The translations under genes and the position numbers were made by a program. Shown here piece after piece: positions 1 to 64,000 of a DNA stretch of 64,000 bases (position 1 is the stretch's first letter; each line of letters starts with the position of its first letter). Source of the DNA: Cyrtodaria siliqua (lineage: Eukaryota > Mollusca > Bivalvia > Adapedonta > Hiatellidae); the NCBI GenBank assembly GCA_037043455.1, contig JAWPHD010010245.1, positions 1 through 64,000 of the forward strand, written 5' to 3'. The notes under the pieces are model-generated. The model saw only the letters and a list, made by a program, of their open reading frames with translations. It searched no databases and was not told where the DNA came from.

Positions 1-46
1 TAGGACAGTATTAAAAATCGCTTATCAAGAAAATATTCCATAGAAT

Positions 47-2264: not shown

Positions 2265-2520
2265 CTAGTGCTTTGGTCGCCTTTAATAATATTTTGATTA
2301 CAGGCACCACATCAAAATATGCTGCATAGTGTAACGCTGTCATGTTGGTCCATCGACATCGGATGTTTGGATCTGCCCCACGCGCCAGGAGCATGCTCAC
2401 CACCTCCGCCGCCATATCCGGGTCACCGATACCAGCGGCTCCCGACTTGCCGGCATAATGAAGTAACGTCATGTCCGTCAGTCCATCTCTGTCGTTGATA
2501 TGTCCTCCTCGCTTTAATAT
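2265..2520 (-). CDS. CLIP4: CLIP3/CLIP4-like protein, ankyrin-repeat exon
   Basis: Internal coding exon of a CAP-Gly linker protein related to vertebrate CLIP3 and CLIP4, which combine ankyrin repeats with CAP-Gly domains and act on microtubules and membrane traffic. The 85 complete codons read NDRDGLTDMTLLHYAGKSGA near the start and RWTNMTALHYAAYFDV later; both are family signatures and the second is an ankyrin helix pair. Splice signals on the minus strand are acceptor TTTAG at 2521-2525 and donor GTAATT from 2264. The exon starts in phase 0, continuing exon 4487-4772 across the conserved NE/ILKRG junction, and ends in phase 1. Later ankyrin and CAP-Gly exons are outside the window. CLIP4 rather than CLIP3 is suggested by the ILKRG wording, but an invertebrate co-orthologue of both is likely. 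Confidence 0.9.
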
Positions 2521-6813: not shown

Positions 6814-6887
6814 CTGGTACCCTCTTGCATGTTAAAATGTACCCCCAGGATCAAAATTTAAACAAACTTGGTAGTGGATCATTATAA

Positions 6888-26253: not shown

Positions 26254-26377
26254 TATATATATGTATTTTGGGGGTTCTGGATCAAATCTCGAGTAAAAAC
26301 GAGAGATTTGGTCCAGAACCCCCATAATACATATATTAACGAGAGATTTGGTCCAGAACCCCAAAATACATATATAT
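26254..26377. repeat. Inverted plus direct repeat cluster
   Basis: ATGTATTTTGGGGGTTCTGG on the left is inverted twice to the right, each time as CGAGAGATTTGGTCCAG followed by AACCCC and (A/T)ACATATAT. The second inverted arm abuts the LINE fragment at 26379. Confidence 0.8.
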
Positions 26378-26378
26378 C

Positions 26379-27673
26379 CCCAAGGCACGGTAATGGGTCC
26401 TTTGCTGTTCCTAATTTACATCAATGACCTCCCATCCAGAGTCAATGCATCGGTAAGATTGTTTGCAGACGATTGTCTGCTCGACCGCAACATCAACTCA
26501 GCAGCTGACACATTGACCCTCCAAGCTGATCTGGGCAGCCTACAGCAGTGGGAGAAGGAATGGCACACGGACTTCAATCCTGACCCTCCAAGCTGATCTG
26601 GGCAGCCTACAGCAGTGGGAGAAGGAATGGCACACGGACTTCAATCCTGACAAATGCCCTCCAAGCTGATCTGGGCAGCCTACAGCAGTGGGAGAAGGAA
26701 TGGCACACGGACTTCAATCCTGACAAATGCCCTCCAAGCTGATCTGGGCAGCCTACAGCAGTGGGAGAAGGAATGGCACACGGACTTCAATCCTGACAAA
26801 TGTGAGCACATACATGCAACATCAACTCAGCAGCTGACACGTTGTCCCTCCAAGCTGATCTGGGCAGCCTACAGCAGTGGGAGAAGGAATGGCACACGGA
26901 CTTCAATCCTGACACATTGACCCTCCAAGCTGATCTGGGCAGCCTACAGCAGTGGGAGAAGGAATGGCACACGGACTTCAATCCTGACAAATGTGAGCAC
27001 ATACATGCATCACCAACAACAGGAATGTCATAAACTCACACTACACCATCCATGACCAAATGCTTAAACAGAATAACAAATCAAAATATCTAGGAGTCAC
27101 CATAGACAGTTCCCTGACTTGGAATAGCCATACTGACACCCTTACCAAGAAAGCAAACAACACTACTGCCTTCCTAATTACGAACCTCTCATCATGCCCA
27201 CCAGATGTTAAAGCAACTTGCTACAAGTGCATGGTCAGGCCGCAATTGGAATATGCTTCCAGCATTTGGGATCCTCATACACAATCCAACACTGACAAGA
27301 TAGAAGCAGTGCAACGCAGAGCTGTTCGTTTCACAACAGGTGACTACAGGCGTGACAGCAGTGTCACCAGCATGTTGACAAAACTTGGTTGGGAGTCCCT
27401 ACATAGCCGAAGAAAACAGGCCAAAGCTGTAATGATGTACAGAATTATACATCAACTGGTAGAGATACCAACCAGCCCATTCCTCCAACCTATAGGAGCA
27501 AGTACAAGAGGTCATGACAGTCGCTACTTGGTACCACACAGCAGGGTGTGAACGCTCATAAGTTCTCCTTCTTTCCAGCAGGGATCAGATTGTGGAACTG
27601 CTTGCCGACCAGCACGACCGATGCCCAATCCATTGACATATTCAGGTCAAGGATTGTGGTAGTCCTCGGATAG
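26379..27673 (+). pseudogene. LINE (Jockey/CR1-type) ORF2 3' half with sixfold duplication
   Basis: Begins inside RT with [19 protein letters not shown] and RLFADDCLL. At 26517-26990 a block encoding LQADLGSLQQWEKEWHTDFN is repeated six times, so reading frames are broken there. From 27060 the frame continues with SKYLGVTIDSSLTWNSH, RPQLEYASSIWDPHTQ, RAVRFTTGDY and LGWESLHSRRKQAK: the thumb and C-terminal region of Jockey/CR1-type LINEs. A frameshift at about 27548-27551 separates it from the natural end (FSFFPAGIRLWNCLP), which stops at TAG 27671-27673. Not functional. Confidence 0.88.
26517..26992 (+). repeat. Six tandem copies of a 67-116-bp piece of the LINE ORF
   Basis: CCCTCCAAGCTGATCTGGGC starts copies at 26517, 26584, 26657, 26730, 26846 and 26920. 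Junctions differ (GACCCTCC, AAATGCCCTCC, GTTGTCCCTCC, TTGACCCTCC), so spacings are 67, 73, 73, 116 and 74 bp. One copy includes an extra segment with GAGCACATACATGCAACATC. Confidence 0.95.
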
Positions 27674-38042: not shown

Positions 38043-38099
38043 TTTCGGAGGCCCCGGGTTCAATCCTTCGTGGTGCCACTGAGTTTCGTTGGTGTGTTC
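38043..38099 (+). mobile_element. SINE fragment (family of the array SINE)
   Basis: GGGTTCAATCC (box-B-like) followed by TTCGTGGTGCCACTGAGTT, matching the start of the SINE copies in the 2.14-kb array. Cut off at the hAT-like end at 38100. Confidence 0.6.
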
Positions 38100-38530
38100 T
38101 TGGGGTTCTGGAAATATGGCTGCCCGCATCCCCGGGCAAGTAGATTTTGAGTGCGGGCAAGTGACCTTCGCAAATCTGGTTGCCCGCCGCTTGCTCGACA
38201 AACTAGTGTAATAAGAATTTGTTAATTGAACAAAACTGACCGCTGTATTTCACCGTGAGCAACCTAGGAATCTTTATGTGAGGAAGCTATCCAGCTGGCT
38301 TGCGGAACGTCGGTGGTTCTACCTAGGTGCCCGCCCGTGCACGAAAATTGCCCGGAGGGGCACCTGGGGTCTTCCTCCACCAGTGGAAGCTGGAAAGTCG
38401 CCATATTATGACCTTAGCTGTTGGTGCGACTATAAAATCCAATTCAATTCAATTCACCGTGAGCGATTGTTAATAAGATCAAACATATTAAGTCACATTG
38501 ATAATCGAGAGCTTCGAGTAAAAAAATTCC
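38100..38530. mobile_element. Second, decayed copy of the 2818-3334 element, interrupted by a SINE
   Basis: GGGTTCTGGAAATATGGCTG, CCCCGGGCAAGTAG and GTGACCTTCGCAAATCTGG match the element at 2818. At 38261-38452 it is split by a SINE with a 12-bp duplication. The right end is not recognisable. Confidence 0.65.
38261..38452 (+). mobile_element. 5'-truncated SINE, 12-bp TSD
   Basis: Same family as 12427-12709 but lacking the tRNA head: starts CTAGGAATCTTTATGTGAGG and ends CCAATTCAATTCAA. Target duplication TTCACCGTGAGC at 38249-38260 and 38453-38464. The internal C/G tract of the other copy is absent here (CCCGCCCGTGCACG). Confidence 0.88.
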
Positions 38531-41806: not shown

Positions 41807-42098
41807 AAATATAAATATGTTGTACAAGGGGTTGTAATACGTTCTGATTTAACTTCCTGTTTTTTGTTTATAAATTTCATACACTTAATTGAATAGTTTT
41901 TAACAACTAAATGTGCATGTCAGAACTATTTACAGTGTCTTGTAAAGGGGCGAAATATAAATATGTTGAACAAGGGGTTTTAATACGTTCTGATTTAACT
42001 TCCTGTTTTTTGTTTATAAATTTCATACACTTAACTGAATAGTTTTCAACAACTAAATATGCATGTCAGAACTATTTACAATGTCTTGTAAAGGTGGC
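41807..42098. repeat. Tandem duplication, 146-bp period
   Basis: Copy 1 from 41807 and copy 2 from 41953, each beginning AAATATAAATATGTTG and containing ACTTCCTGTTTTTTG and GCATGTCAGAACTATTTAC. About 95% identical by eye. Confidence 0.9.
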
Positions 42099-43829
42099 GT
42101 GGTCTATTATAAATGCCCAAACTTATCCCGCATTCATACATCGTTCCGATGATTGCTAACAAATATTTTTCTACATTTGTATATAGGAATTCAGTTTGTG
42201 AATTTATTGGGGGTGGGAATTCTTTTGATCTACCTAATTAAAATCACATTTAAACATAACCAGATTGTAATTCAAGTCGGAACTATGTATCCAGTCCATT
42301 TACACAGAATGTACAATGTAGAACATTGATTCAAGCAAGATGTGCTGTAAGTCTTAAATTTGAGGTTTATTGATTGCTCAAAGTTTCAATCACTGAGTTT
42401 TAAACGGAACAAGAAGTAAACATATCGGTATTGAAAAAGCATGATTTTCCAAGGAACACAACTCAATTTGACAGTTATTTATGCCCATGTACTATAATTT
42501 TGACCAAATATTGATTTCTTTGTGGATTATGAATACTTTCAAGAAAATGTGGAAACAATTTAGTTTTTAACCTCTTGAACTAGAGTAATGATTTCCTAAG
42601 TGCAATTACGCTATTATAAAATCCACACAAAAATACTCTATGTGAGCTATTAAATTGCTTGCATATAAATTTGTTATTTTATCATGCAGATATGCACTTT
42701 TCTGCCTAATAAAGGGGTGGCAATATAAATATAAATTTTGCTTTATTAGGCACTAACAAATAGAGCAAATCAATGCGGAATCCCTCAGTGTTTATTGTAC
42801 GTCACGTTATCGGACGTCATGCACGTAACGTTGTCTGACGTCATAAAACAAACAAAAAACAACAACATGGCATCGGGGCCTCGCCATTCTTTATTTTCTA
42901 AGCCTCGCCTAATAAACTTGATAGTTAGTAAAAGGCACTGACATAATATTCTCTATTTACGTGACAAAATTATACATTCAAAGCTCATCTATTCGAAGGA
43001 TAAAAGAGCTTATGTAATCATGTCGGCATCCCAGTCCACATCAAGCTCTGCATGGAGACTGTGTTTAGAGGTATATGTCTCATTTCTTGTCCTGGCTCAA
43101 CCAAATTCCTTGTAGTATTATCTTAAGTATTATCATAAGTAATTTTAGTTATTAAATCCCATGGACTCGCATTGAACCCTAATTCTGATAGCCTTTAAAA
43201 TGTGAAGTGTCGTATTAAATTCATCCTTTGGGACCAACGAGCCCAATATAGGTGGCTTTGAAGTAGAAGACCGCTTAAGCCTGTGCTAGGGGGCGTTAGA
43301 GGTGTTGCTTATTTCATTACTTCTCATGAACATACTCAATAAAACCGAGTCTGCTGCTTTATTCTATTAATTGTGTTTGTAGCTCCCGAAGGATCACCTT
43401 TATCAGTATTTATTGTAATCTGTGTTTACAGGCCGGTTTAATAGCTCTTGCATTGCATTACTTGTCTTTGCTCAAATTTGACCTGAGTTTTCTTAGAGTA
43501 GTTCTTAAAGGGTGGTATAAGTAATATAAGTAATTTTGTCTTTTTAATAATCTGGGCGTCCGTGAAACCAACATATTGATGGCTCATAAAATATGCAATA
43601 AAAGGTTTGCGTGTAAGCTATTGTATATACTGGTTGTGTACCAGATATCGTCATTTACCAGATATTGTCATTCGCAATAAAACGCTCAATGTTGTGCTGA
43701 TGTTTCAACCCCACTTTACAAATCAGTACACACTATAAACGATTGGAAATGATTGGACATGATTTTTTTTTTTAAATGTTAAAATTTACTCTCAAACCAA
43801 CCCATTTACATACAATTAGCTCTATTAGA
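42099..43829. other. No gene recognised
   Basis: Includes GCCTAATAAAG / CTTTATTAGGC inverted at 42694-42752 and a cluster of GACGTCA-type (CRE-like) motifs at 42800-42845. No open frame with recognisable similarity. Confidence 0.35.
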
Positions 43830-46015: not shown

Positions 46016-46019
46016 CTAT

Positions 46020-46523
46020 TGTATCTTGGGTAGTACATCACAACATCTCTAAAAGCATATGTGGATTGACCTTCACCTTCCACTAGTCCAAAGTGGTGCT
46101 GCATTTATTCACTATATTATCCACTAGTCGGATGGTTCTGCATTTATTTACTATATTATCCACTAGTCAGGCATTCCATTTACTACATTTACTATACAAA
46201 TGTGCATGTGACCTTGACCTTTTAGGTTGTGATATCCTAAATATAGCTTGGGCTTTGCCACGCCCCTTTCCAGGAGTGACCTGAGTCAGAAGTGAAAGGT
46301 CCCAAAAATTAAATCACGTCTGATAAATGTTTCAAAATACATTTTCAGATTTGTTAATTAATAAATATTATAACCTCTACTAAATTGAGGGCATTTAATT
46401 TTACCAAAATTATTTTTTTAAACATGAAATTGTGAGCTTAACCCCCACTCAAAAACAGGTAAATCTTTACTGCGGTTTTGCATGTAAACAAATATGGCGG
46501 CCCCCACGGAAAGTTCTGTAGGG
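46020..46523. repeat. Diverged partial copy of the array unit
   Basis: TCTTGGGTAGTACATCACAAC, CCACTAGTC...GCATTTATT and the 46195-46520 segment (TTTCCAGGAGTGACCTGAG, GTAAACAAATATGGCGG) match parts of the 2.14-kb units at about 90% by eye. It lacks the segment corresponding to about 47755-48590, so it shows a shorter version of the unit. Confidence 0.8.
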
Positions 46524-46982
46524 GGTCATATACCACTATTGCATTTTACATAGGGTTACATTATAGCCTTTTGGCCCTAAAACACATTTTACATACCCAA
46601 GGGAACCTTTTAGGCTACTTTATTTTCAAGAACTATCCTAGACACACTTAAAAAAGTGAAAATAATTGGGGGTTTTGTAATGCTTTCACCTACTTTCGGT
46701 TTGATGAAGGTGCTGACCGTCGGGCTCGCAGCAAATAAATGTGAATTTCTGACAATTTACTATACCTGCAATTTTCTCAATAAAATAGCCCAGATGCAAG
46801 AACAAATACAGTGTTTTTTTTTTATCACCTACACATATTATTTTGACATTTTATGTACACCAGTTATGATTAAGGCAATTCTACCCAATCAGAAAATAGC
46901 TCTTTCGAAAAAGATATACCCTAATACACCCTATACTTTTTTCAGCCAATCAGCAGCCCCAAAACAATAGTGGTATGTGACC
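46524..46982. mobile_element. 459-bp TIR element in the diverged unit, 5-bp TSD TAGGG
   Basis: Ends GGTCATATACCACTATTG and, inverted, GGTCACATACCACTATTG (one mismatch). TAGGG at 46519-46523 and 46983-46987. Array units show the empty site TGTAGGGGAAACCTG. A 104-codon plus frame inside is not recognisable. Confidence 0.85.
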
Positions 46983-46987
46983 TAGGG

Positions 46988-47641
46988 GAAACCTGGGGGG
47001 GCACTCCTCAGTTTCGCATGAATGTCCATGGTGTAAATCAGAAAGAAATCAACTAAGCATCTTTTAGGTTCATGGATGGTCTTTATAATAATTATGAAGC
47101 ACATGTTTGATGTTTTTTTCAGTTTTGATTACTTCTAAGTTTATTTTGGTGTATTGGAATATGCATTCTTTGGGTTTTTTGGAGGCTATAAATAGAAAAA
47201 TGTGAACCAATCAAAAACTTCCTAAAAGTAGTTAAAATGGCTGATTTTCACTGACGAGGAGATCAACGTGGAATAACTTTTTAAAATGGCGGACTAGGTA
47301 TGTAAAATTTAGCATTTCCTGAGTGCAGACATGACCGTGATATGTGTAGGAATTTTTTTAATTTTTATTTATTGACATTTGAAATATTGGTAAAATTGCA
47401 TTTTTAGCATGTTTTAAGGGGTGGGGTAATCTTAAAGAAATGTGACTAAAGTTGTACAGAAAATGCTTTTTGATACTTTTATTTGGTATGGAAACATGGG
47501 TAATTTTATTGTCTTCTAAGAAATGTATGACGCAATGATGATGTGATTTATTTTTGCTCAAGGATTCAGGCTAAGAGCTTGTCATGGGTTTGATGATTGA
47601 GAAATGTACATTAAACTGTGGAGTATTTTGACGTATTTAGG
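46988..47641. other. Unique-looking AT-rich sequence between diverged copy and array
   Basis: After AAACCTG the sequence departs from the array unit. No gene recognised. It joins the array at GTATTTAGGTCAGTCTCAG. Confidence 0.4.
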
Positions 47642-48065
47642 TCAGTCTCAGTGTATGCACTAGACCTTTCAAACATTGCTTATAGTTCTATCTTGGGTAG
47701 TACATCGCAACATCTTAAAAAAGCAAACGTGAATGTGATCTTCACCTTCCAAGCAAAGAGCAGGTAAGGAAACATTCTATTTTGACGTAGTTGTCTTGTG
47801 TAGAGCGTCTTTTTAGATGTATGGATTTTATCTATGAACTTGACCTACTTATTTGGGAGTGATTTTGTTTTTGTTTTAAAGAATGTCATTTTGTTTTTAA
47901 AAGAATGCACATCAGCAAAATGTAAACGCGATTATTTTTAGTTATTAATGTTTACAAACTTCATTTAACAACATTTACCTTTAATTTCTGTGTCTCGTCC
48001 CAAGACACCTGTGTGGTTGCCGGGGTAGAATACAACCACTGCAAACACACCGTCACATGCAGAGG

Positions 48066-48083
48066 CCCCCCCCCCCCCCCCCC
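48066..48083. repeat. C tract, unit 1 (18 C)
   Basis: Follows CACATGCAGAGG. Equivalent tracts: 50205-50225 (21), 52347-52363 (17), 54482-54494 (13), 56612-56629 (18), 58765-58794 (30), 60911-60924 (14), 63034-63067 (34). Confidence 0.95.
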
Positions 48084-48201
48084 ACCCAATTCATATTGAT
48101 TTTGTCATAATTTTTTATCATGATCATTCAAGGTCTTTATCATGACACCGTGTATGCAAGCATGGAAACATGGCTCCATCGTAAATGGAGTGTGTACTGT
48201 A

Positions 48202-48455
48202 GAATTTGCAGCAACTCTGCAGTTCTGTAAGTAACAAGGTTCTAGGCCCATTCTACGTATTTTTTCTTGATGTAAACGGAGGAATGGAGGAATGAGTCTG
48301 GCATATTCATTCCTGTTAGGCGCCATATAACCTTTTATGTGTTGATGCGCGCGCCTTTAAACCCAATTCAATTCGTCCCGAGATGTGAATTCACTGATTA
48401 CCTACTAGTCTGGTCATGTGCTGCGTTTATTCACTATATAATCCAATAGTCCGGC
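48202..48455. repeat. Internal 250-bp segment, first copy in unit 1
   Basis: AATTTGCAGCAACTCTGCAG through TCCATTTACTAC. It recurs at 48772-49020 at about 90% identity, with the differences GCGCGCGCC versus GCGGGCGCC and a 20-bp deletion (TAAACGGAGGAATGGAGG-like sequence missing in the second copy). Both copies exist in each array unit. Confidence 0.85.
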
Positions 48456-48750
48456 ATCCATTTACTACATTATCCACTAGTCAGGCATTCATTTACTATA
48501 GTATCCACCAGTCAGGCATTCATTGACTATATTATCCACTAGTATTGTCCACTAGTCCTTTAGTGGAGCTGCATTTATTTACTATACTATCCACTAGTCC
48601 TTTAGTGGAGCTGCATTTATTCTCTATATTACCCACTAGTCCTTTAGTGGGTGCTGCATTTATTTACTATACTGCCCACTAGTCCTTTAGTGGTGCTGCA
48701 TTTATTCACTATATTATCCACTAGTCCGGCATTCCATTTACTACACAAAT
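48456..48750. repeat. 40-50-bp hairpin-capable repeats (CCACTAGTCCTTTAGTGG)
   Basis: Repeats of CCACTAGTCCTTTAGTGG followed by (A/T)GCTGCATTTATT. Each CCACTA...TAGTGG can form a 6-bp stem. Four such hairpins per unit in units 1-4. Units 5-8 show partial homogenisation (GTGGTGCTG replacing GTGGAGCTG or GTGGGTGCTG), and unit 7 lacks one TCCTTTAG. Confidence 0.9.
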
Positions 48751-49448
48751 GTGCATGTGACCTTGACCTTGAATTTGCAGCAACTCTGCAGTTCTGTAGG
48801 TAACAAGGTTCTAAGCCCATTCTACATATTTTTTCTTGATGAGTCTGTCATATTCATTCCTGTTAGGCGCCATATAACCTTTCATGTGTTGGTGCGGGCG
48901 CCTTTAAACCCAATTCAATTCTATTCATCCCGAGATGTGAATTCACTGATTATCTACTAGTCGGGTCATTTGCTGCGTTTATTCACTATATAATCCAATA
49001 GTCAGGCATCCATTTACTACAATAACTATATAAATGTGCCTGCGACCTTGACCTTGTTGGTTGTGGTATCCTAAATATAGCATGGACTTGGCCACCCCCC
49101 TTTCCAGGAGTGACCTGAGCCAGAAGTGAAAGGTCCCAAAAATTAAATCACGTCTGATAAATGTTTCAAAATACATTTTCAGATTTGTTAATTAATAAAT
49201 AACCTCTACTAAATTGAGGGCATTTAATTTTACCAAAAGTATTTTTTAAACATGAAATTGTGAGCTAAACCCCCACTCAAAAACAGGTAAATCTTTACTG
49301 CGGTTTTGCATGTAAACAAATATGGCGGCCCCCATGGAAAGTTCTGTAGGGGAAACCTGCTGAATTTTAAATTTTAGCACATTGGACTTGGACTCATCTT
49401 GAAAATAAGACGCATCTTTCTGAATTTGCAAATGTGCATGTGACCTTG

Positions 49449-49729
49449 ACCCTTCAATCCTCCGTGGTGCCACTGAGTTCCGTCGGTGTGTTCTTGGGCA
49501 AGACATTTTACCTTAGCCTCGTCCGTCGGATGGGGACGTAAACCGGGCGGTCCCGTGTATCGGTCTATCTTCCGAGCACGTTAAAGAACCATAGGAATCT
49601 ATTCGATAATAAGAGTAGGGCAGGTTCCCGGATTCCTATGTATCCTTCCCCTCTCTCTGGGGCGGCTCTAAATAACCTATACTGTGTTGATGAGCCGTTA
49701 AACAACATTCAATTCAATTCAATTCAATC
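49449..49729 (+). mobile_element. 5'-truncated SINE inside each array unit
   Basis: Starts with TTCAATCCTCCGTGGTGCC (remains of a box-B region). It continues GTCCGTCGGATGGGGACG, GAGCACGTTAAAGAACC and AGAGTAGGGCAGGTTCCCGG, and ends GAGCCGTTAAACAAC plus (ATTCA)n. The GACGT...GCACGTTAAAGAACC core resembles a conserved central domain shared by many marine-invertebrate SINEs (possibly MetaSINE-like; from memory). Further copies: 51591-51871, 53729-54009, 55856-56136, 57997-58277, 60155-60435, 62278-62558. The copies are part of the unit, so one insertion was amplified with the array. Confidence 0.85.
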
Positions 49730-52700
49730 AAAGGGCAGATAACTTAATATTTTTTTTTGCATTAAATTTGTGTATTTAGGTCAGTCTCAGTGTATGCACT
49801 AGACCTTTCAAACATTGCTTATAGTTCTATCTTGGGTAGTACATCGCAACATCTCAAAAAAGCAAACGTGAATGTGATCTTCACCTTCCAAGCAAAGAGC
49901 AGGTAAGGAAACATTCTATTTTGACGTAGTTGTCTTGTGTAGAGCGTCTTTTTAGATGTATGGATTTTATCTATGAACTTGACCTACTTATTTGGGAGTG
50001 ATTTTGTTTTTGTTTTAAAGAATGTCATTTTGTTTTTAAAAGAATGCACATCAGCAAAATGTAAACGCGATTATTTTTAGTTATTAATGTTTACAAACTT
50101 CATTTAACAACATTTACCTTTAATTTCTGTGTCTCGTCCCAAGACACCTGTGTGGTTGCCGGGGTAGAATACAACCACTGCAAACACACCGTCACATGCA
50201 GAGGCCCCCCCCCCCCCCCCCCCCCACCCAATTCATATTGATTTTGTCATAATTTTTTATCATGATCATTCAAGGTCTTTATCATGACACCGTGTATGCA
50301 AGCATGGAAACATGGCTCCATCGTAAATGGAGTGTGTACTGTAGAATTTGCAGCAACTCTGCAGTTCTGTAAGTAACAAGGTTCTAGGCCCATTCTACGT
50401 ATTTTTTCTTGATGTAAATGGAGGAATGGAGGAATGAGTCTGGCATATTCATTCCTGTTAGGCGCCATATAACCTTTTATGTGTTGATGCGCGCGCCTTT
50501 AAACCCAATTCAATTCGTCCCGAGATGTGAATTCACTGATTACCTACTAGTCTGGTCATGTGCTGCGTTTATTCACTATATAATCCAATAGTCCGGCATC
50601 CATTTACTACATTATCCACTAGTCAGGCATTCATTTACTATAGTATCCACCAGTCAGGCATTCATTGACTATATTATCCACTAGTATTGTCCACTAGTCC
50701 TTTAGTGGAGCTGCATTTATTTACTATACTATCCACTAGTCCTTTAGTGGAGCTGCATTTATTCTCTATATTACCCACTAGTCCTTTAGTGGGTGCTGCA
50801 TTTATTTACTATACTGCCCACTAGTCCTTTAGTGGTGCTGCATTTATTCACTATATTATCCACTAGTCCGGCATTCCATTTACTACACAAATGTGCATGT
50901 GACCTTGACCTTGAATTTGCAGCAACTCTGCAGTTCTGTAGGTAACAAGGTTCTAAGCCCATTCTACATATTTTTTCTTGATGAGTCTGTCATATTCATT
51001 CCTGTTAGGCGCCATATAACCTTTCATGTGTTGGTGCGGGCGCCTTTAAACCCAATTCAATTCTATTCATCCCGAGATGTGAATTCACTGATTATCTACT
51101 AGTCGGGTCATTTGCTGCGTTTATTCACTATATAATCCAATAGTCAGGCATCCATTTACTACAATAACTATATAAATGTGCCTGCGACCTTGACCTTGTT
51201 GGTTGTGGTATCCTAAATATAGCATGGACTTGGCCACCCCCCTTTCCAGGAGTGACCTGAGCCAGAAGTGAAAGGTCCCAAAAATTAAATCACGTCTGAT
51301 AAATGTTTCAAAATACATTTTCAGATTTGTTAATTAATAAATAACCTCTACTAAATTGAGGGCATTTAATTTTACCAAAAGTATTTTTTAAACATGAAAT
51401 TGTGAGCTAAACCCCCACTCAAAAACAGGTAAATCTTTACTGCGGTTTTGCATGTAAACAAATATGGCGGCCCCCATGGAAAGTTCTGTAGGGGAAACCT
51501 GCTGAATTTTAAATTTTAGCACATTGGACTTGGACTCATCTTGAAAATAAGACGCATCTTTCTGAATTTGCAAATGTGCATGTGACCTTGACCCTTCAAT
51601 CCTCCGTGGTGCCACTGAGTTCCGTCGGTGTGTTCTTGGGCAAGACATTTTACCTTAGCCTCGTCCGTCGGATGGGGACGTAAACCGGGCGGTCCCGTGT
51701 ATCGGTCTATCTTCCGAGCACGTTAAAGAACCATAGGAATCTATTCGATAATAAGAGTAGGGCAGGTTCCCGGATTCCTATGTATCCTTCCCCTCTCTCT
51801 GGGGCGGCTCTAAATAACCTATACTGTGTTGATGAGCCGTTAAACAACATTCAATTCAATTCAATTCAATCAAAGGGCAGATAACTTAATTTTTTTTTTT
51901 GCATTAAATTTGTGTATTTAGGTCAGTCTCAGTGTATGCACTAGACCTTTCAAACATTGCTTATAGTTCTATCTTGGGTAGTACATCGCAACATCTCAAA
52001 AAAGCAAACGTGAATGTGATCTTCACCTTCCAAGCAAAGAGCAGGTAAGGAAACATTCTATTTTGACGTAGTTGTCTTGTGTAGAGCGTCTTTTTAGATG
52101 TATGGATTTTATCTATGAACTTGACCTACTTATTTGGGAGTGATTTTGTTTTTGTTTTAAAGAATGTCATTTTGTTTTTAAAAGAATGCACATCAGCAAA
52201 ATGTAAACGCGATTATTTTTAGTTATTAATGTTTACAAACTTCATTTAACAACATTTACCTTTAATTTCTGTGTCTCGTCCCAAGACACCTGTGTGGTTG
52301 CCGGGGTAGAATACAACCACTGCAAACACACCGTCACATGCAGAGGCCCCCCCCCCCCCCCCCACCCAATTCATATTGATTTTGTCATAATTTTTTATCA
52401 TGATCATTCAAGGTCTTTATCATGACACCGTGTATGCAAGCATGGAAACATGGCTCCATCGTAAATGGAGTGTGTACTGTAGAATTTGCAGCAACTCTGC
52501 AGTTCTGTAAGTAACAAGGTTCTAGGCCCATTCTACGTATTTTTTCTTGATGTAAACGGAGGAATGGAGGAATGAGTCTGGCATATTCATTCCTGTTAGG
52601 CGCCATATAACCTTTTATGTGTTGATGCGCGCGCCTTTAAACCCAATTCAATTCGTCCCGAGATGTGAATTCACTGATTACCTACTAGTCTGGTCATGTG

Positions 52701-55700
52701 CTGCGTTTATTCACTATATAATCCAATAGTCCGGCATCCATTTACTACATTATCCACTAGTCAGGCATTCATTTACTATAGTATCCACCAGTCAGGCATT
52801 CATTGACTATATTATCCACTAGTATTGTCCACTAGTCCTTTAGTGGAGCTGCATTTATTTACTATACTATCCACTAGTCCTTTAGTGGAGCTGCATTTAT
52901 TCTCTATATTACCCACTAGTCCTTTAGTGGGTGCTGCATTTATTTACTATACTGCCCACTAGTCCTTTAGTGGTGCTGCATTTATTCACTATATTATCCA
53001 CTAGTCCGGCATTCCATTTACTACACAAATGTGCATGTGACCTTGACCTTGAATTTGCAGCAACTCTGCAGTTCTGTAGGTAACAAGGTTCTAAGCCCAT
53101 TCTACATATTTTTTCTTGATGAGTCTGTCATATTCATTCCTGTTAGGCGCCATATAACCTTTCATGTGTTGGTGCGGGCGCCTTTAAACCCAATTCAATT
53201 CTATTCATCCCGAGATGTGAATTCACTGATTATCTACTAGTCGGGTCATTTGCTGCGTTTATTCACTATATAATCCAATAGTCAGGCATCCATTTACTAC
53301 AATAACTATATAAATGTGCCTGCGACCTTGACCTTGTTGGTTGTGGTATCCTAAATATAGCATGGACTTGGCCACCCCCCTTTCCAGGAGTGACCTGAGC
53401 CAGAAGTGAAAGGTCCCAAAAATTAAATCACGTCTGATAAATGTTTCAAAATACATTTTCAGATTTGTTAATTAATAAATAACCTCTACTAAATTGAGGG
53501 CATTTAATTTTACCAAAAGTATTTTTTAAACATGAAATTGTGAGCTAAACCCCCACTCAAAAACAGGTAAATCTTTACTGCGGTTTTGCATGTAAACAAA
53601 TATGGCGGCCCCCATGGAAAGTTCTGTAGGGGAAACCTGCTGAATTTTAAATTTTAGCACATTGGACTTGGACTCATCTTGAAAATAAGACGCATCTTTC
53701 TGAATTTGCAAATGTGCATGTGACCTTGACCCTTCAATCCTCCGTGGTGCCACTGAGTTCCGTCGGTGTGTTCTTGGGCAAGACATTTTACCTTAGCCTC
53801 GTCCGTCGGATGGGGACGTAAACCGGGCGGTCCCGTGTATCGGTCTATCTTCCGAGCACGTTAAAGAACCATAGGAATCTATTCGATAATAAGAGTAGGG
53901 CAGGTTCCCGGATTCCTATGTATCCTTCCCCTCTCTCTGGGGCGGCTCTAAATAACCTATACTGTGTTGATGAGCCGTTAAACAACATTCAATTCAATTC
54001 AATTCAATCAAAGGGCAGATAACTTAATATTTTTTTTTGCATTAAATTTGTGTATTTAGGTCAGTCTCAGTGTATGCACTAGACCTTTCAAACATTGCTT
54101 ATAGTTCTATCTTGGGTAGTACATCGCAACATCTCAAAAAAGCAAACGTGAATGTGATCTTCACCTTCCAAGCAAAGAGCAGGTAAGGAAACATTCTATT
54201 TTGACGTAGTCTTGTGTAGAGCGTCTTTTTAGATGTATGGATTTTATCTATGAACTTGACCTACTTATTTGGGAGTGATTTTGTTTTTGTTTTAAAGAAT
54301 GTCATTTTGTTTTTAAAAGAATGCACATCAGCAAAATGTAAACGCGATTATTTTTAGTTATTAATGTTTACAAACTTCATTTAACAACATTTACCTTTAA
54401 TTTCTGTGTCTCGTCCCAAGACACCTGTGTGGTTGCCGGGGTAGAATACAACCACTGCAAACACACCGTCACATGCAGAGGCCCCCCCCCCCCCAATTCA
54501 TATTGATTTTGTCATAATTTTTTATCATGATCATTCAAGGTCTTTATCATGACACCGTGTATGCAAGCATGGAAACATGGCTCCATCGTAAATGGAGTGT
54601 GTACTGTAGAATTTGCAGCAACTCTGCAGTTCTGTAAGTAACAAGGTTCTAGGCCCATTCTACGTATTTTTTCTTGATGTAAATGGAGGAATGGAGGAAT
54701 GAGTCTGGCATATTCATTCCTGTTAGGCGCCATATAACCTTTTATGTGTTGATGCGCGCGCCTTTAAACCCAATTCAATTCGTCCCGAAATGTGAATTCA
54801 CTGATTACCTACTAGTCTGGTCATGTGCTGCGTTTATTCACTATATAATCCAATAGTCCGGCATCCATTTACTACATTATCCACTAGTCAGGCATTCATT
54901 TACTATAGTATCCACCAGTCAGGCATTCATTGACTATATTATCCACTAGTATTGTCCACTAGTCCTTTAGTGGAGCTGCATTTATTTACTATACTATCCA
55001 CTAGTCCTTTAGTGGAGCTGCATTTATTCTCTATATTACCCACTAGTCCTTTAGTGGGTGCTGCATTTATTTACTATACTGCCCACTAGTCCTTTAGTGG
55101 TGCTGCATTTATTCACTATATTATCCACTAGTCCGGCATTCCATTTACTACACAAATGTGCATGTGACCTTGACCTTGAATTTGCAGCAACTCTGCAGTT
55201 CTGTAGGTAACAAGGTTCTAAGCCCATTCTACATATTTTTTCTTGATGAGTCTGTCATATTCATTCCTGTTAGGCGCCATATAACCTTTCATGTGTTGGT
55301 GCGGGCGCCTTTAAACCCAATTCAATTCTATTCATCCCGAGATGTGAATTCACTGATTATCTACTAGTCGGGTCATTTGCTGCGTTTATTCACTATATAA
55401 TCCAATAGTCAGGCATCCATTTACTACAATAACTATATAAATGTGCCTGCGACCTTGACCTTGTTGGTTGTGGTATCCTAAATATAGCATGGACTTGGCC
55501 ACCCCCCTTTCCAGGAGTGACCTGAGCCAGAAGTGAAAGGTCCCAAAAATTAAATCACGTCTGATAAATGTTTCAAAATACATTTTCAGATTTGTTAATT
55601 AATAAATAACCTCTACTAAATTGAGGGCATTTAATTTTACCAAAAGTATTTTTTAAACATGAAATTGTGAGCTAAACCCCCACTCAAAAACAGGTAAATC

Positions 55701-58700
55701 TTTACTGCGGTTTTGCATGTAAACAAATATGGCGGCCCCCATGGAAAGTTCTGTAGGGGAAACCTGCTGAATTTTAAATTTTAGCACATTGGACTTGGAC
55801 TCATCTTGAAAATAAGACGCATCTTTCTGAATTTGCAAATGTGCATGTGACCTTGACCCTTCAATCCTCCGTGGTGCCACTGAGTTCCGTCGGTGTGTTC
55901 TTGGGCAAGACATTTTACCTTAGCCTCGTCCGTCGGATGGGGACGTAAACCGGGCGGTCCCGTGTATCGGTCTATCTTCCGAGCACGTTAAAGAACCATA
56001 GGAATCTATTCGATAATAAGAGTAGGGCAGGTTCCCGGATTCCTATGTATCCTTCCCCTCTCTCTGGGGCGGCTCTAAATAACCTATACTGTGTTGATGA
56101 GCCGTTAAACAACATTCAATTCAATTCAATTCAATCAAAGGGCAGATAACTTAATATTTTTTTTTGCATTAAATTTGTGTATTTAGGTCAGTCTCAGTGT
56201 ATGCACTAGACCTTTCAAACATTGCTTATAGTTCTATCTTGGGTAGTACATCGCAACATCTCAAAAAAGCAAACGTGAATGTGATCTTCACCTTCCAAGC
56301 AAAGAGCAGGTAAGGAAACATTCTATTTTGACGTAGTTGTCTTGTGTAGAGCGTCTTTTTAGATGTATGGATTTTATCTATGAACTTGACCTACTTATTT
56401 GGGAGTGATTTTGTTTTTGTTTTAAAGAATGTCATTTTGTTTTTAAAAGAATGCACATCAGCAAAATGTAAACGCGATTATTTTTAGTTATTAATGTTTA
56501 CAAACTTCATTTAACAACATTTACCTTTAATTTCTGTGTCTCGTCCCAAGACACCTGTGTGGTTGCCGGGGTAGAATACAACCACTGCAAACACACCGTC
56601 ACATGCAGAGGCCCCCCCCCCCCCCCCCCAAACCCAATTCATATTGATTTTGTCATAATTTTTTATCATGATCATTCAAGGTCTTTATCATGACACCGTG
56701 TATGCAAGCATGGAAACATGGCTCCATCGTAAATGGAGTGTGTACTGTAGAATTTGCAGCAACTCTGCAGTTCTGTAAGTAACAAGGTTCTAGGCCCATT
56801 CTACGTATTTTTTCTTGATGTAAATGGAGGAATGGAGGAATGAGTCTGGCATATTCATTCCTGTTAGGCGCCATATAACCTTTTATGTGTTGATGCGCGC
56901 GCCTTTAAACCCAATTCAATTCGTCCCGAGATGTGAATTCACTGATTACCTACTAGTCTGGTCATGTGCTGCGTTTATTCACTATATAATCCAATAGTCC
57001 GGCATCCATTTACTACATTATCCACTAGTCAGGCATTCATTTACTATAGTATCCACCAGTCAGGCATTCATTGACTATATTATCCACTAGTATTGTCCAC
57101 TAGTCCTTTAGTGGAGCTGCATTTATTTACTATACTATCCACTAGTCCTTTAGTGGAGCTGCATTTATTCTCTATATTACCCACTAGTCCCTTTAGTGGT
57201 GCTGCATTTATTTACTATACTGCCCACTAGTCCTTTAGTGGTGCTGCATTTATTCACTATATTATCCACTAGTCCGGCATTCCATTTACTACACAAATGT
57301 GCATGTGACCTTGACCTTGAATTTGCAGCAACTCTGCAGTTCTGTAGGTAACAAGGTTCTAAGCCCATTCTACATATTTTTTCTTGATGAGTCTGTCATA
57401 TTCATTCCTGTTAGGCGCCATATAACCTTTCATGTGTTGGTGCGGGCGCCTTTAAACCCAATTCAATTCTATTCATCCCGAGATGTGAATTCACTGATTA
57501 TCTACTAGTCGGGTCATTTGCTGCGTTTATTCACTATATAATCCAATAGTCAGGCATCCATTTACTACAATAACTATATAAATGTGCCTGCGACCTTGAC
57601 CTTGTTGGTTGTGGTATCCTAAATATAGCATGGACTTGGCCACACCCCTTTCCAGGAGTGACCTGAGCCAGAAGTGAAAGGTCCCAAAAATTAAATCACG
57701 TCTGATAAATGTTTCAAAATACATTTTCAGATTTGTTAATTAATAAATAACCTCTACTAAATTGAGGGCATTTAATTTTACCAAAAGTATTTTTTAAACA
57801 TGAAATTGTGAGCTAAACCCCCACTCAAAAACAGGTAAATCTTTACTGCGGTTTTGCATGTAAACAAATATGGCGGCCCCCATGGAAAGTTCTGTAGGGG
57901 AAACCTGCTGAATTTTAAATTTTAGCACATTGGACTTGGACTCATCTTGAAAATAAGACGCATCTTTCTGAATTTGCAAATGTGCATGTGACCTTGACCC
58001 TTCAATCCTCCGTGGTGCCACTGAGTTCCGTCGGTGTGTTCTTGGGCAAGACATTTTACCTTAGCCTCGTCCGTCGGATGGGGACGTAAACCGGGCGGTC
58101 CCGTGTATCGGTCTATTTTCCGAGCACGTTAAAGAACCATAGGAATCTATTCGATAATAAGAGTAGGGCAGGTTCCCGGATTCCTATGTATCCTTCCCCT
58201 CTCTCTGGGGCGGCTCTAAATAACCTATACTGTGTTGATGAGCCGTTAAACAACATTCAATTCAATTCAATTCAATCAAAGGGCAGATAACTTAATATTT
58301 TTTTTTGCATTAAATTTGTGTATTTAGGTCAGTCTCAGTGTATGCACTAGACCTTTCAAACATTGCTTATAGTTCTATCTTGGGTAGTACATCGCAACAT
58401 CTCAAAAAAGCAAACGTGAATGTGATCTTCACCTTCCAAGCAAAGAGCAGGTAAGGAAACATTCTATTTTGACGTAGTTGTCTTGTGTAGAGCGTCTTTT
58501 TAGATGTATGGATTTTATCTATGAACTTGACCTACTTATTTGGGAGTGATTTTGTTTTTGTTTTAAAGAATGTCATTTTGTTTTTAAAAGAATGCACATC
58601 AGCAAAATGTAAACGCGATTATTTTTATTTATTAATGTTTACAAACTTCATTTAACAACATTTACCTTTAATTTCTGTGTCTCGTCCCAAGACACCTGTG

Positions 58701-58762
58701 TGGTTGCCGGGGTAGAATACAACCACTGCAAACACACCGTCACATGCAGAGGCACATGCAGA

Positions 58763-58797
<35 letters not shown>

Positions 58798-61700
58798 TCA
58801 TATTGATTTTGTCATAATTTTTTATCATGATCATTCAAGGTCTTTATCATGACACCGTGTATGCAAGCATGGAAACATGGCTCCATCGTAAATGAAGTGT
58901 GTACTGTAGAATTTGCAGCAACTCTGCAGTTCTGTAAGTAACAAGGTTCTAGGCCCATTCTACGTATTTTTTCTTGATGTAAATGGAGGAATGGAGGAAT
59001 GAGTCTGGCATATTCATTCCTGTTAGGCGCCATATAACCTTTTATGTGTTGATGCGCGCGCCTTTAAACCCAATTCAATTCGTCCCGAGATGTGAATTCA
59101 CTGATTACCTACTAGTCTGGTCATGTGCTGCGTTTATTCACTATATAATCCAATAGTCCGGCATCCATTTACTACATTATCCACTAGTCAGGCATTCATT
59201 TACTATAGTATCCACCAGTCAGGCATTCATTGACTATATTATCCACTAGTATTGTCCACTAGTCCTTTAGTGGAGCTGCATTTATTTACTATACTAGCCA
59301 CTAGTCCTTTAGTGGTGCTGCATTTATTCTCTATATTACCCACTAGTCCTTTAGTGGTGCTGCATTTATTTACTATACTGCCCACTAGTCCTTTAGTGGT
59401 GCTGCATTTATTCACTATATTATCCACTAGTCCGGCATTCCATTTACTACACAAATGTGCATGTGACCTTGACCTTGAATTTGCAGCAACTCTGCAGTTC
59501 TGTAGGTAACAAGGTTCTAAGCCCATTCTACATATTTTTTCTTGATGAGTCTGTCATATTCATTCCTGTTAGGCGCCATATAACCTTTCATGTGTTGGTG
59601 CGGGCGCCTTTAAACCCAATTCAATTCTATTCATCCCGAGATGTGAATTCACTGATTATCTACTAGTCGGGTCATTTGCTGCGTTTATTCACTATATAAT
59701 CCAATAGTCAGGCATCCATTTACTACAATAACTATATAAATGTGCCTGCGACCTTGACCTTGTTGGTTGTGGTATCCTAAATATAGCATGGACTTGGCCA
59801 CGCCCCTTTCCAGGAGTGACCTGAGCCAGAAGTGAAAGGTCCCAAAAATTAAATCACGTCTGATAAATGTTTCAAAATACATTTTCAGATTTGTTAATTA
59901 ATAAATAACCTCTACTAAATTGAGGGCATTTAATTTTACCAAAAGTATTTTTTAAACATGAAATTGTGAGCGAAACCCCCACTCAAAAACAGGTAAATCT
60001 TAACTGCGGTTTTGCATGTAAACAAATATGGCGGCCCCCATGGAAAGTTCTGTAGGGGAAACCTGCTGAATTTTAAATTTTAGCACATTGGACTTGGACT
60101 CATCTTGAAAATAAGACGCATCTTTCTGAATTTGCAAATGTGCATGTGACCTTGACCCTTCAATCCTCCGTGGTGCCACTGAGTTCCGTCGGTGTGTTCT
60201 TGGGCAAGACATTTTACCTTAGCCTCGTCCGTCGGATGGGGACGTAAACCGGGCGGTCCCGTGTATCGGTCTATCTTCCGAGCACGTTAAAGAACCATAG
60301 GAATCTATTCGATAATAAGAGTAGGGCAGGTTCCCGGATTCCTATGTATCCTTCCCCTCTCTCTGGGGCGGCTCTAAATAACCTATACTGTGTTGATGAG
60401 CCGTTAAACAACATTCAATTCAATTCAATTCAATCAAAGGGCAGATAACTTAATAATTTTTTTTGCATTAAATTTGTGTATTTAGGTCAGTCTCAGTGTA
60501 TGCACTAGACCTTTCAAACATTGCTTATAGTTCTATCTTGGGTAGTACATCGCAACATCTCAAAAAAGCAAACGTGAATGTGATCTTCACCTTCCAAGCA
60601 AAGAGCAGGTAAGGAAACATTCTATTTTGACGTAGTTGTCTTGTGTAGAGCGTCTTTTTAGATGTATGGATTTTATCTATGAACTTGACCTACTTATTTG
60701 GGAGTGATTTTGTTTTTGTTTTAAAGAATGTCATTTTGTTTTTAAAAGAATGCACATCAGCAAAATGTAAACGCGATTATTTTTATTTATTAATGTTTAC
60801 AAACTTCATTTAACAACATTTACCTTTAATTTCTGTGTCTCGTCCCAAGACACCTGTGTGGTTGCCGGGGTAGAATACAACCACTGCAAACACACCGTCA
60901 CATGCAGAGGCCCCCCCCCCCCCCAAATTCATATTGATTTTGTCATAATTTTTTATCATGATCATTCAAGGTCTTTATCATGACACCGTGTATGCAAGCA
61001 TGGAAACATGGCTCCATCGTAAATGAAGTGTGTACTGTAGAATTTGCAGCAACTCTGCAGTTCTGTAAGTAACAAGGTTCTAGGCCCATTCTACGTATTT
61101 TTTCTTGATGTAAATGGAGGAATGGAGGAATGAGTCTGGCATATTCATTCCTGTTAGGCGCCATATAACCTTTTATGTGTTGATGCGCGCGCCTTTAAAC
61201 CCAATTCAATTCGTCCCGAGATGTGAATTCACTGATTACCTACTAGTCTGGTCATGTGCTGCGTTTATTCACTATATAATCCAATAGTCCGGCATCCATT
61301 TACTACATTATCCACTAGTCAGGCATTCATTTACTATAGTATCCACCAGTCAGGCATTCATTGACTATATTATCCACTAGTATTGTCCACTAGTGGAGCT
61401 GCATTTATTTACTATACTAGCCACTAGTCCTTTAGTGGTGCTGCATTTATTCTCTATATTACCCACTAGTCCTTTAGTGGTGCTGCATTTATTTACTATA
61501 CTGCCCACTAGTCCTTTAGTGGTGCTGCATTTATTCACTATATTATCCACTAGTCCGGCATTCCATTTACTACACAAATGTGCATGTGACCTTGACCTTG
61601 AATTTGCAGCAACTCTGCAGTTCTGTAGGTAACAAGGTTCTAAGCCCATTCTACATATTTTTTCTTGATGAGTCTGTCATATTCATTCCTGTTAGGCGCC

Positions 61701-63031
61701 ATATAACCTTTCATGTGTTGGTGCGGGCGCCTTTAAACCCAATTCAATTCTATTCATCCCGAGATGTGAATTCACTGATTATCTACTAGTCGGGTCATTT
61801 GCTGCGTTTATTCACTATATAATCCAATAGTCAGGCATCCATTTACTACAATAACTATATAAATGTGCCTGCGACCTTGACCTTGTTGGTTGTGGTATCC
61901 TAAATATAGCATGGACTTGGCCACGCCCCTTTCCAGGAGTGACCTGAGCCAGAAGTGAAAGGTCCCAAAAATTAAATCACGTCTGATAAATGTTTCAAAA
62001 TACATTTTCAGATTTGTTAATTAATAAATAACCTCTACTAAATTGAGGGCATTTAATTTTACCAAAAGTATTTTTTAAACATGAAATTGTGAGCTAAACC
62101 CCCACTCAAAAACAGGTAAATCTTTACTGCGGTTTTGCATGTAAACAAATATGGCGGCCCCCATGGAAAGTTCTGTAGGGGAAACCTGCTGAATTTTAAA
62201 TTTTAGTACATTGGACTTGGACTCATCTTGAAAATAAGACGCATCTTTCTGAATTTGCAAATGTGCATGTGACCTTGACCCTTCAATCCTCCGTGGTGCC
62301 ACTGAGTTCCGTCGGTGTGTTCTTGGGCAAGACATTTTACCTTAGCCTCGTCCGTCGGATGGGGACGTAAACCGGGCGGTCCCGTGTATCGGTCTATCTT
62401 CCGAGCACGTTAAAGAACCATAGGAATCTATTCGATAATAAGAGTAGGGCAGGTTCCCGGATTCCTATGTATCCTTCCCCTCTCTCTGGGGCGGCTCTAA
62501 ATAACCTATACTGTGTTGATGAGCCGTTAAACAACATTCAATTCAATTCAATTCAATCAAAGGGCAGATAACTTAATATTTTTTTTTGCATTAAATTTGT
62601 GTATTTAGGTCAGTCTCAGTGTATGCACTAGACCTTTCAAACATTGCTTATAGTTCTATCTTGGGTAGTACATCGCAACATCTCAAAAAAGCAAACGTGA
62701 ATGTGATCTTCACCTTCCAAGCAAAGAGCAGGTAAGGAAAAATTCTATTTTGACGTAGTTGTCTTGTGTAGAGCGTCTTTTTAGATGTATGGATTTTATC
62801 TATGAACTTGACCTACTTATTTGGGAGTGATTTTGTTTTTGTTTTAAAGAATGTCATTTTGTTTTTAAAAGAATGCACATCAGCAAAATGTAAACGCGAT
62901 TATTTTTATTTATTAATGTTTACAAACTTCATTTAACAACATTTACCTTTAATTTCTGTGTCTCGTCCCAAGACACCTGTGTGGTTGCCGGGGTAGAATA
63001 CAACCACTGCAAACACACCGTCACATGCAGA

Positions 63032-63070
<39 letters not shown>

Positions 63071-64000
63071 TCATATTGATTTTGTCATAATTTTTTATCA
63101 TGATCATTCAAGGTCTTTATCATGACACCGTGTATGCAAGCATGGAAACATGGCTCCATCGTAAATGAAGTGTGTACTGTAGAATTTGCAGCAACTCTGC
63201 AGTTCTGTAAGTAACAAGGTTCTAGGCCCATTCTACGTATTTTTTCTTGATGTAAATGGAGGAATGGAGGAATGAGTCTGGCATATTCATTCCTGTTAGG
63301 CGCCATATAACCTTTTATGTGTTGATGCGCGCGCCTTTAAACCCAATTCAATTCGTCCCGAGATGTGAATTCACTGATTACCTACTAGTCTGGTCATGTG
63401 CTGCGTTTATTCACTATATAATATAATCCAATAGTCCGGCATCCATTTACTACATTATCCACTAGTCAGGCATTCATTTACTATAGTATCCACCAGTCAG
63501 GCATTCATTGACTATATTATCCACTAGTATTGTCCACTAGTCCTTTAGTGGAGCTGCATTTATTTACTATACTAGCCACTAGTCCTTTAGTGGTGCTGCA
63601 TTTATTCTCTATATTACCCACTAGTCCTTTAGTGGTGCTGCATTTATTTACTATACTGCCCACTAGTCCTTTAGTGGTGCTGCATTTATTCACTATATTA
63701 TCCACTAGTCCGGCATTCCATTTACTACACAAATGTGCATGTGACCTTGACCTTGAATTTGCAGCAACTCTGCAGTTCTGTAGGTAACAAGGTTCTAAGC
63801 CCATTCTACATATTTTTTCTTGATGAGTCTTGTCATATTCATTCCTGTTAGGCGCCATATAACCTTTCATGTGTTGGTGCGGGCGCCTTTAAACCCAATT
63901 CAATTCTATTCATCCCGAGATGTGAATTCACTGATTATCTACTAGTCGGGTCATTTGCTGCGTTTATTCACTATATAATCCAATAGTCAGGCATCCATTT

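What the first reader, a model, noticed from the sequence alone, without database searches (positions are those of the whole stretch)
47642..64000. Recently amplified 2.14-kb tandem array with a hypervariable C tract
Seven complete units and an eighth partial one are nearly identical (I see only scattered substitutions), yet the poly-C tract in each differs: 18, 21, 17, 13, 18, 30, 14 and 34. Near-identity implies recent amplification or ongoing homogenisation. The unit is itself a mosaic: a SINE, an internal duplication, hairpin repeats and a segment with a diverged copy just outside the array. Shared variants group units 1-5 against 6-8 (for example GGAGTGTGTACTG versus GAAGTGTGTACTG), which suggests block-wise duplication.
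Basis: seen in the sequence. Interest (0 to 1): 0.75.

Follow-up and report, generated by a model that had tools for sequence, protein, structure and literature searches.

The report
Mosaic satellite array carrying a SINE
The window catches the edge of a long array of a 2.1-kb satellite repeat, built from transposon scraps, that has expanded in blocks and occurs in many places in this large genome; it is a handsome but ordinary kind of repetitive DNA.

Summary
In detail: unit starts at 47634, 49773, 51915, 54053, 56180, 58321, 60479 and 62602, with C tracts of 18, 21, 17, 13, 18, 30, 14, 34. Outside the tract there are 19 substitution columns and 6 indels. The scale was underestimated. The array runs to the contig end (47634-95699, 22 unit starts), arrays were read in five contigs, and the unit matches 18 contigs in all. 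The '1-5 versus 6-8' split continues as 1-5 versus the 15 later full units examined, each block with derived changes of its own: two side-by-side local expansions. Six of 73 full units lack the SINE and keep the empty site, flanked in filled units by a 7-bp duplication, so one insertion was later spread by amplification. Four units identical elsewhere carry four different tracts, but the assembly has noisy units and the longest tracts sit in imperfect units, so part of the tract variation may be consensus error. New member of a known kind: long-unit satellite DNA built from dispersed repeats. Organism and copy number were not established.

The parts
47634..64000 (+). satellite array as seen in the window (continues to contig base 95699)
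47634..49772 (+). unit 1 (2139 bp)
49773..51914 (+). unit 2 (2142 bp), reference unit for the anatomy below
51915..54052 (+). unit 3 (2138 bp)
54053..56179 (+). unit 4 (2127 bp)
56180..58320 (+). unit 5 (2141 bp), last unit of the edge block
58321..60478 (+). unit 6 (2158 bp), first unit of the second block; 12-bp CACATGCAGAGG duplicated next to its tract
60479..62601 (+). unit 7 (2123 bp), 8-bp loss in the minisatellite
62602..64000 (+). unit 8, cut by the window; on the contig it runs to about 64496 and is fused to a ninth unit lacking its first 282 bp
49773..49903 (+). segment A of unit 2: its positions 53-118 have a dispersed copy at 46019-46082; also holds the 123-nt exon-like stretch
50205..50225 (+). 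C tract of unit 2 (21); the others start at 48066, 52347, 54482, 56612, 58765, 60911, 63034
50344..50614 (+). internal duplication, first copy
50571..50869 (+). 31-/42-bp hairpin minisatellite (CCACTAGTCCTTTAGTGG); single-strand DNA fold z -3.56 for 50674-50820
50913..51166 (+). internal duplication, second copy (85.5%)
51083..51494 (+). segment D, 92% copy just outside the array
51595..51601 (+). 5' copy of the target-site duplication TTCAATC
51602..51864 (+). SINE-like insert with (ATTCA)n tail; absent from 6 of 73 full units of the family
51865..51871 (+). 3' copy of the target-site duplication
46019..46524 (+). diverged relative outside the array (part of A, minisatellite, D)

Best explanation
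This is satellite DNA. A 1.87-kb mosaic of dispersed-repeat fragments (a dispersed repeat piece, a poly-C bearing piece, a duplicated piece with a hairpin minisatellite, and segment D) became tandem. A 5'-truncated SINE then inserted once into one unit, making the 2.14-kb form, and that form was multiplied. Arrays grow by copying runs of neighbouring units (unequal exchange or replication-based copying), seen here as two adjacent blocks (units 1-5; units 6 onward), and the family occupies many loci. The C tract is a passenger homopolymer, probably grown from a C-rich stretch interrupted by A, which slips after duplication and so differs even between units otherwise identical. Shown: array extent to the contig end, matches in 18 contigs, block structure with polarity, SINE empty site, tract differences in the assembly. 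Inferred: unequal exchange as the copying step, slippage as the cause of tract change, how the family reached other contigs, the 5' truncation of the SINE, and absence of function.
For: Array to the contig end; full units in four other contigs, mostly 97-99% and in a few cases 94-97% like unit 2; 18 contigs in all with matches. In C10245 the states T317 and A547 are in 15 of 15 later full units, 0 of 5 first units and 0 of 53 full units elsewhere; A978 is in 5 of 5 first units and C1496 in 4 of 5 (A in the fifth), neither in the 15 later units nor elsewhere (two units elsewhere have a gap at 978). Divergence within units 1-5 0.12%, within the later block 0.44% for all 15 units and 0.15% for 12 after dropping three noisy ones, between blocks 0.51%. 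Two-site conflicts within C10245: 7 of 36 pairs, all involving two columns beside a T run; 0 of 21 without them. SINE-less units read GACCC-TTCAATC-AAAGGG, filled units carry TTCAATC on both sides. Diverged matches beside the C12586 and C13325 arrays that reach the SINE site (three, 93-95%) lack it. No Rfam match at gathering scores and no tRNA in the window.
Against: The C10245 left edge is not diverged, unlike C12586 and C13325, so histories differ between arrays. Pooled over contigs two-site conflicts occur in 20 of 276 pairs (73 units) or 21 of 406 (67 SINE-bearing units), so exchange between arrays or repeated mutation occurred. In C6218 similarity does not fall with distance (medians 0.12-0.19% at lags 1-8). 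In C20751 only 2 of 11 units have their nearest relative in the same contig. SINE-less units differ from most SINE-bearing ones at one substitution and one 3-bp indel, so the two forms are not freely mixed. Noisy units (18 private substitutions and 18 private indels at 68470) show residual assembly error.
Confidence: 0.85

Rival explanations
1. The C-tract variation is mostly sequencing or polishing error in long homopolymers; the array is real but its tract lengths are not.
For: Some units are plainly noisy. All four runs of 26 or more among the 20 full C10245 units lie in the 9 units with a private indel or more than one private substitution, 0 in the 11 cleaner ones (126/4845 = 0.026, worked by hand). 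Differences among four otherwise identical units are small (19, 17, 15, 17), the size of homopolymer miscalls.
Against: The correlation of private indels with run length in C10245 is weak (Spearman 0.23, p 0.33). A interruptions are array-specific: 57 of 58 tracts in the four other contigs are interrupted, 16 of 22 in C10245 are pure, which error would hardly produce. The one pair of identical units in C12586 has the same tract.
Confidence: 0.35
2. Rolling-circle amplification (Helitron/Helentron-type, or extrachromosomal circles) made and scattered the arrays.
For: Hairpin-forming minisatellite in the unit; satellites of 2056-2091 bp with Helitron similarity are listed for the oyster Crassostrea gigas (PMC8268682); the left flank of the window's array shares only repeats with the stretches read of the four other contigs.
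Against: No Helitron ends or Rep/helicase gene was seen, but none was specifically searched for. Block-wise relations of neighbours are what plain unequal exchange gives. C12586 and C13325 share repeat stretches of up to 98% beside their arrays, so those two may not be independent loci.
Confidence: 0.2
3. The array multiplies an exon: a 123-nt open stretch at the start of each unit with a good splice donor, so a gene would encode repeated 41-residue blocks.
For: Near-perfect donor (score 12.4); at the unit's own score cut-offs such open pairs are rare in the flank (1 on the + strand, 0 on the - strand of 45.9 kb) against 2 in the unit. The 41-residue reading is identical in 8 of 8 units although one base in it varies. 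Weak PTB-domain match, E 0.083, 13.4 bits against a cut-off of 27.
Against: Weak acceptor (3.2); no match among solved structures; the dispersed relative at 46019 has a stop and frame breaks; at relaxed cut-offs open exon-like pairs are common in the flank (29 and 30 on the two strands). Splice weights were typed from recall.
Confidence: 0.03
4. Assembly artefact: the tandem copies are false.
For: Four of the five contigs read end inside the array; noisy units occur.
Against: Array-specific derived variants, different tract architectures, and SINE-bearing beside SINE-less units in the five contigs read; further probe matches in 13 other contigs.
Confidence: 0.03

Closest known systems
Long-monomer satellites of Crassostrea gigas (CgiSat04 2077 bp, CgiSat07 2091 bp, CgiSat48 2056 bp, CgiSat13 2414 bp; PMC8268682)
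   Same: about 2-kb tandem units with mobile-element similarity
   Different: those are matched to Helitron or Kolobok elements in the paper's Table 1; here no element family was identified, and the unit carries a SINE insertion with empty units still present. Sequences were not compared.
PcH-Sat of the limpet Patella caerulea, derived in part from a Nin-SINE (PMC11121367, abstract)
   Same: mollusc satellite that incorporates a SINE piece
   Different: 179-bp monomer in which the SINE piece (118 bp) is most of the unit; here the SINE is a late insertion into a long unit. That the present host is a mollusc was not tested.
Composite 'shuffled' satellite/Helitron loci (review PMC12628747, passages)
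   Same: tandem units assembled from truncated transposons
   Different: no Helitron component shown here
Homopolymeric G tracts of Caenorhabditis elegans (PMC9071541, passages)
   Same: long G tracts scattered in the genome, prone to change
   Different: there the described change is deletion of the tract with 50-300 bp beside it, above all without DOG-1/FANCJ; here, in the units compared, the change seen is of length with the tract flanks kept (one 12-bp duplication beside a tract)

Membership tests
Satellite DNA (long-unit, from dispersed repeats) | head-to-tail array of many near-identical units | tested here: met
   22 unit starts in C10245 and 29 in C6218 over 60.7 kb, both running off the contig end
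Satellite DNA (long-unit, from dispersed repeats) | several loci in the genome | tested here: met
   arrays read in 5 contigs, matches in 18; 40 of 40 scored places match but only 40 of 3233 first-look candidates were scored; copy number unknown, and some contigs could belong to one chromosomal array
Satellite DNA (long-unit, from dispersed repeats) | non-coding | tested here: inconclusive
   no Rfam match or tRNA, no Pfam match above cut-off for the one open stretch tested, no homologue for two unit ORFs; no transcripts at hand
Satellite DNA (long-unit, from dispersed repeats) | unit built from dispersed repeats | tested here: met
   pieces of the unit recur outside the array at 46019-46524 and 38059-38104
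Satellite DNA (long-unit, from dispersed repeats) | heterochromatic or centromeric location | not testable with these tools
   no chromosome map; no run of three or more TTAGGG in the stretches read
SINE (insert of the unit) | target-site duplication flanking the insert and an empty site elsewhere | tested here: met
   TTCAATC on both sides; six empty units; the repeat resembles the ATTCA tail, so its exact length is uncertain
SINE (insert of the unit) | RNA polymerase III promoter head | tested here: inconclusive
   no tRNA found by ARAGORN, which does not score SINE heads; the insert appears 5'-truncated. The name SINE rests on the tail, the target duplication and recall
Helitron/Helentron | Rep/helicase gene or defined 5' and 3' ends with 3' hairpin | not tested
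   no reference ends at hand; only an internal hairpin minisatellite was seen

The most novel reading that the evidence does not exclude
The pure poly-C tract is not a passenger but the driver: where the A interruptions are lost, replication stalls at the G-rich strand and restarts by copying neighbouring units, so pure-tract arrays such as this one expand in fresh blocks. Against it: the interrupted-tract array C6218 is longer and more uniform than this one.
Probability: 0.04. Interest if true: 0.65.

Novelty: new member of a known kind. Interest (0 to 1): 0.35.

Why it matters
The family offers one marked event (a single SINE insertion), block-specific variants and contigs that hold both the old and the new unit form, so the order of satellite growth can be read directly. 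The same unit with short interrupted tracts in one array and long pure tracts in another is a natural setting to measure homopolymer instability, once accurate reads are available.

Tried and rejected
Exon array: a 123-nt open stretch with a strong donor was tested and set aside. Interrupted tracts being steadier than pure ones: the eight window tracts suggested it (variance ratio 39, p 0.0067), but with all 80 tracts it does not hold at the 5% level (Levene p 0.088; 0.081 without C6218; 0.14 after also dropping runs of 26 or more), so it is not claimed. In one search unit 6 counts as interrupted only because its 12-bp duplication falls in the parsed stretch. Tract length following the unit tree: r 0.32, p 0.097 in the window, not claimed. 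Three unit stretches were folded as DNA; only the minisatellite stood out clearly (z -3.56; the others -1.48 and -2.47). Exact short patterns in viral contigs (three patterns) and prokaryote genome contigs (one pattern), and unit 2 against plasmids: no match. Homologues of two unit ORFs: none. Literature searches: no paper on such a C tract in satellite units was recognised in the listings; this is not proof of absence. In one search the SINE label is a 23-base probe and is wrong for the noisy unit at 68470, which does hold the insert; the count of SINE-less units is that, by length.

A genome-wide copy count with a 30-base pattern was asked for 16 times and never answered, so no copy number is given.
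Full report
The observation. Eight head-to-tail copies begin at 47634, 49773, 51915, 54053, 56180, 58321, 60479 and 62602; seven are complete (2123-2158 bp) and the eighth is cut by the window end. With the tract removed there are 19 substitution columns and 6 indels. Four of the 19 columns (1005-1010) are private to unit 5 and are probably an alignment effect of two 1-bp indels, since in the larger alignment unit 5 lacks the extra base at column 1042. The eight units show seven tract lengths, so at least six changes, against 19 substitution columns in about 2115 sites: a per-locus to per-site ratio of at least about 670 if the assembled lengths are right.

Anatomy of the unit (positions of unit 2). 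Positions 53-118 recur at 46019-46082 (86%), 1311-1722 at 46107-46524 (92%), and 1823-1868 at 38059-38104 (93%). Two internal copies (572-842 and 1141-1394) are 85.5% alike. From the end of the first towards the second lies a 31-/42-bp minisatellite whose CCACTAGTCCTTTAGTGG units fold into hairpins (z -3.56 against shuffles; two other stretches of the unit gave -1.48 and -2.47). The outside relative is itself broken by a MITE-like insert with inverted ends. No Rfam match at gathering scores and no tRNA was found in the window.

Beyond the window. The genome search, busy at first, answered: the window is bases 1-64000 of contig C10245 (95,699 bp) in an assembly of 2.88 Gb and 26,948 contigs. 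The array fills the contig to its last base: 22 unit starts plus one unit without a start, fused to unit 8 at about 64496. The same unit, in opposite orientation, forms arrays in C12586, C20751, C13325 and C6218; four of these five contigs end inside the array. A 436-bp probe gave 40 scored places, all matches, in 17 contigs; with C13325 that makes 18. Only 40 of 3233 first-look candidates were scored, so this is a lower bound. The 13 contigs beyond the five were not read.

How it grew. I aligned 73 full units of five contigs (of 80 unit starts; 7 open, fused or interrupted ones left out) without the tract. Mean divergence within arrays: C10245 0.45%, C12586 0.62%, C20751 0.94%, C13325 0.23% (two units), C6218 0.15%; between arrays 0.40-0.84%. 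Arrays are thus hardly more alike inside than between, except C6218. The nearest relative is in the same contig for 62 of 73 units (28 of 28 in C6218, 20 of 20 in C10245, 10 of 12 in C12586, 2 of 2 in C13325, but only 2 of 11 in C20751). In C10245 the first five units and the 15 later full units each carry states absent from the other group and from the 53 full units elsewhere. Window neighbours are more alike than distant units (Mantel r 0.45, p 0.024), but in C6218 there is no such decline.

The SINE as a time mark. Six units (four in C12586, two in C20751) are about 1.8-1.87 kb and read GACCC-TTCAATC-AAAGGG where the others hold about 270 further bases with TTCAATC at both ends. The insert therefore most simply came by one retrotransposition into one unit. 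SINE-bearing units occur in all five contigs read. The SINE is as diverse among its copies (0.57%) as the rest of the unit (0.48%). SINE-less units are 0.84% diverse and 0.66-0.83% from SINE-bearing ones, with one near-fixed substitution and one near-fixed 3-bp indel between the forms. Beside the arrays of C12586 and C13325 lie diverged matches (86-97% by BLAST, tract and gaps counted). Three of them reach the SINE site (93-95%) and lack the SINE; the others stop short of it and do not tell. This fits an older layer.

The C tract. C10245 has pure tracts in 16 of 22 units (17 if unit 6, whose 12-bp duplication was parsed as an interruption, is counted as pure); the other contigs have interrupted tracts in 57 of 58. 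In C6218 the form C8-A-C7-A is in 15 of 28 full units. In C10245 four units identical everywhere else have tracts C19, C17, C15A and C17A; 0 of 19 pairs with at most one other difference share a tract, and 1 of 23 with at most two. In C6218 10 of 29 otherwise identical pairs share it, 15 of 68 and 40 of 129 at the two looser limits. Against a purely biological reading: one unit (68470) shows 18 private substitutions and 18 private indels, and runs of 26 or more occur only in imperfect units, 4 of 9 against 0 of 11. The early idea that interruptions steady the tract did not hold at the 5% level in the larger set. Outside the array (1701-47633) runs of six or more reach eleven or more in 3 of 7 cases for C/G and 1 of 134 for A/T (Fisher p 0.0003), so long C/G tracts may be a wider habit of this genome, on small numbers.

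What it is. The defining features of satellite DNA that could be tested are met, save that absence of coding is only weakly tested. Long satellites of transposon origin are known: Crassostrea gigas has 52 satellites with units of 21-3287 bp, several near 2.1 kb and matched to Helitron (PMC8268682, passages and part of its tables); a limpet satellite contains a Nin-SINE piece (PMC11121367, abstract and outline); mechanisms are reviewed in PMC12628747 (passages). G-tract instability in C. elegans is described in PMC9071541 (passages). PMC9385698, a long toad satellite, was seen as abstract and outline only. I therefore file it as a new member of a known kind.

Noticed in passing
window 46517-46990: MITE-like insert with inverted ends (GGTCATATACCACTATTG and its near complement) inside the diverged copy of segment D.
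   Followed up: partly
window 3563, 12543, 38848: Long G/C homopolymers (G54, G18, C30) outside the array, against a single A/T run of 11 or more there.
   Followed up: partly
C20751 12958-17138 (in L014, L015): A 4,179-bp insert splits a satellite unit, with a 4-bp repeat TATT at the break and inverted ends (TTGTTACC...ACAAATTCT): probably a DNA transposon.
   Followed up: partly
window 5070-6814: A repeat of about 320 bp in tandem, with an 89% relative beside the satellite array in C13325 at 60119-61989.
   Followed up: no
window 44-1693: Short-period tandem repeat, read as long open frames of CFIYHNVSHTTMF type in several frames.
   Followed up: no
window 2257-2517, minus strand: Ankyrin-repeat exon (Pfam Ank, E 8.5e-10), perhaps of a CLIP-type gene (recalled, not tested).
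   Followed up: no
window 26297-26593: Reverse transcriptase fragment (RVT_1, E 3.1e-7).
   Followed up: no
window 41807-42099: Two tandem copies of a 146-bp sequence, 95% alike.
   Followed up: no
C12586 36001-50000 and C13325 44001-60080: Beside their arrays the two contigs share repeat stretches of 86-98% in different order: an older, shuffled layer, or loci that are not independent.
   Followed up: partly
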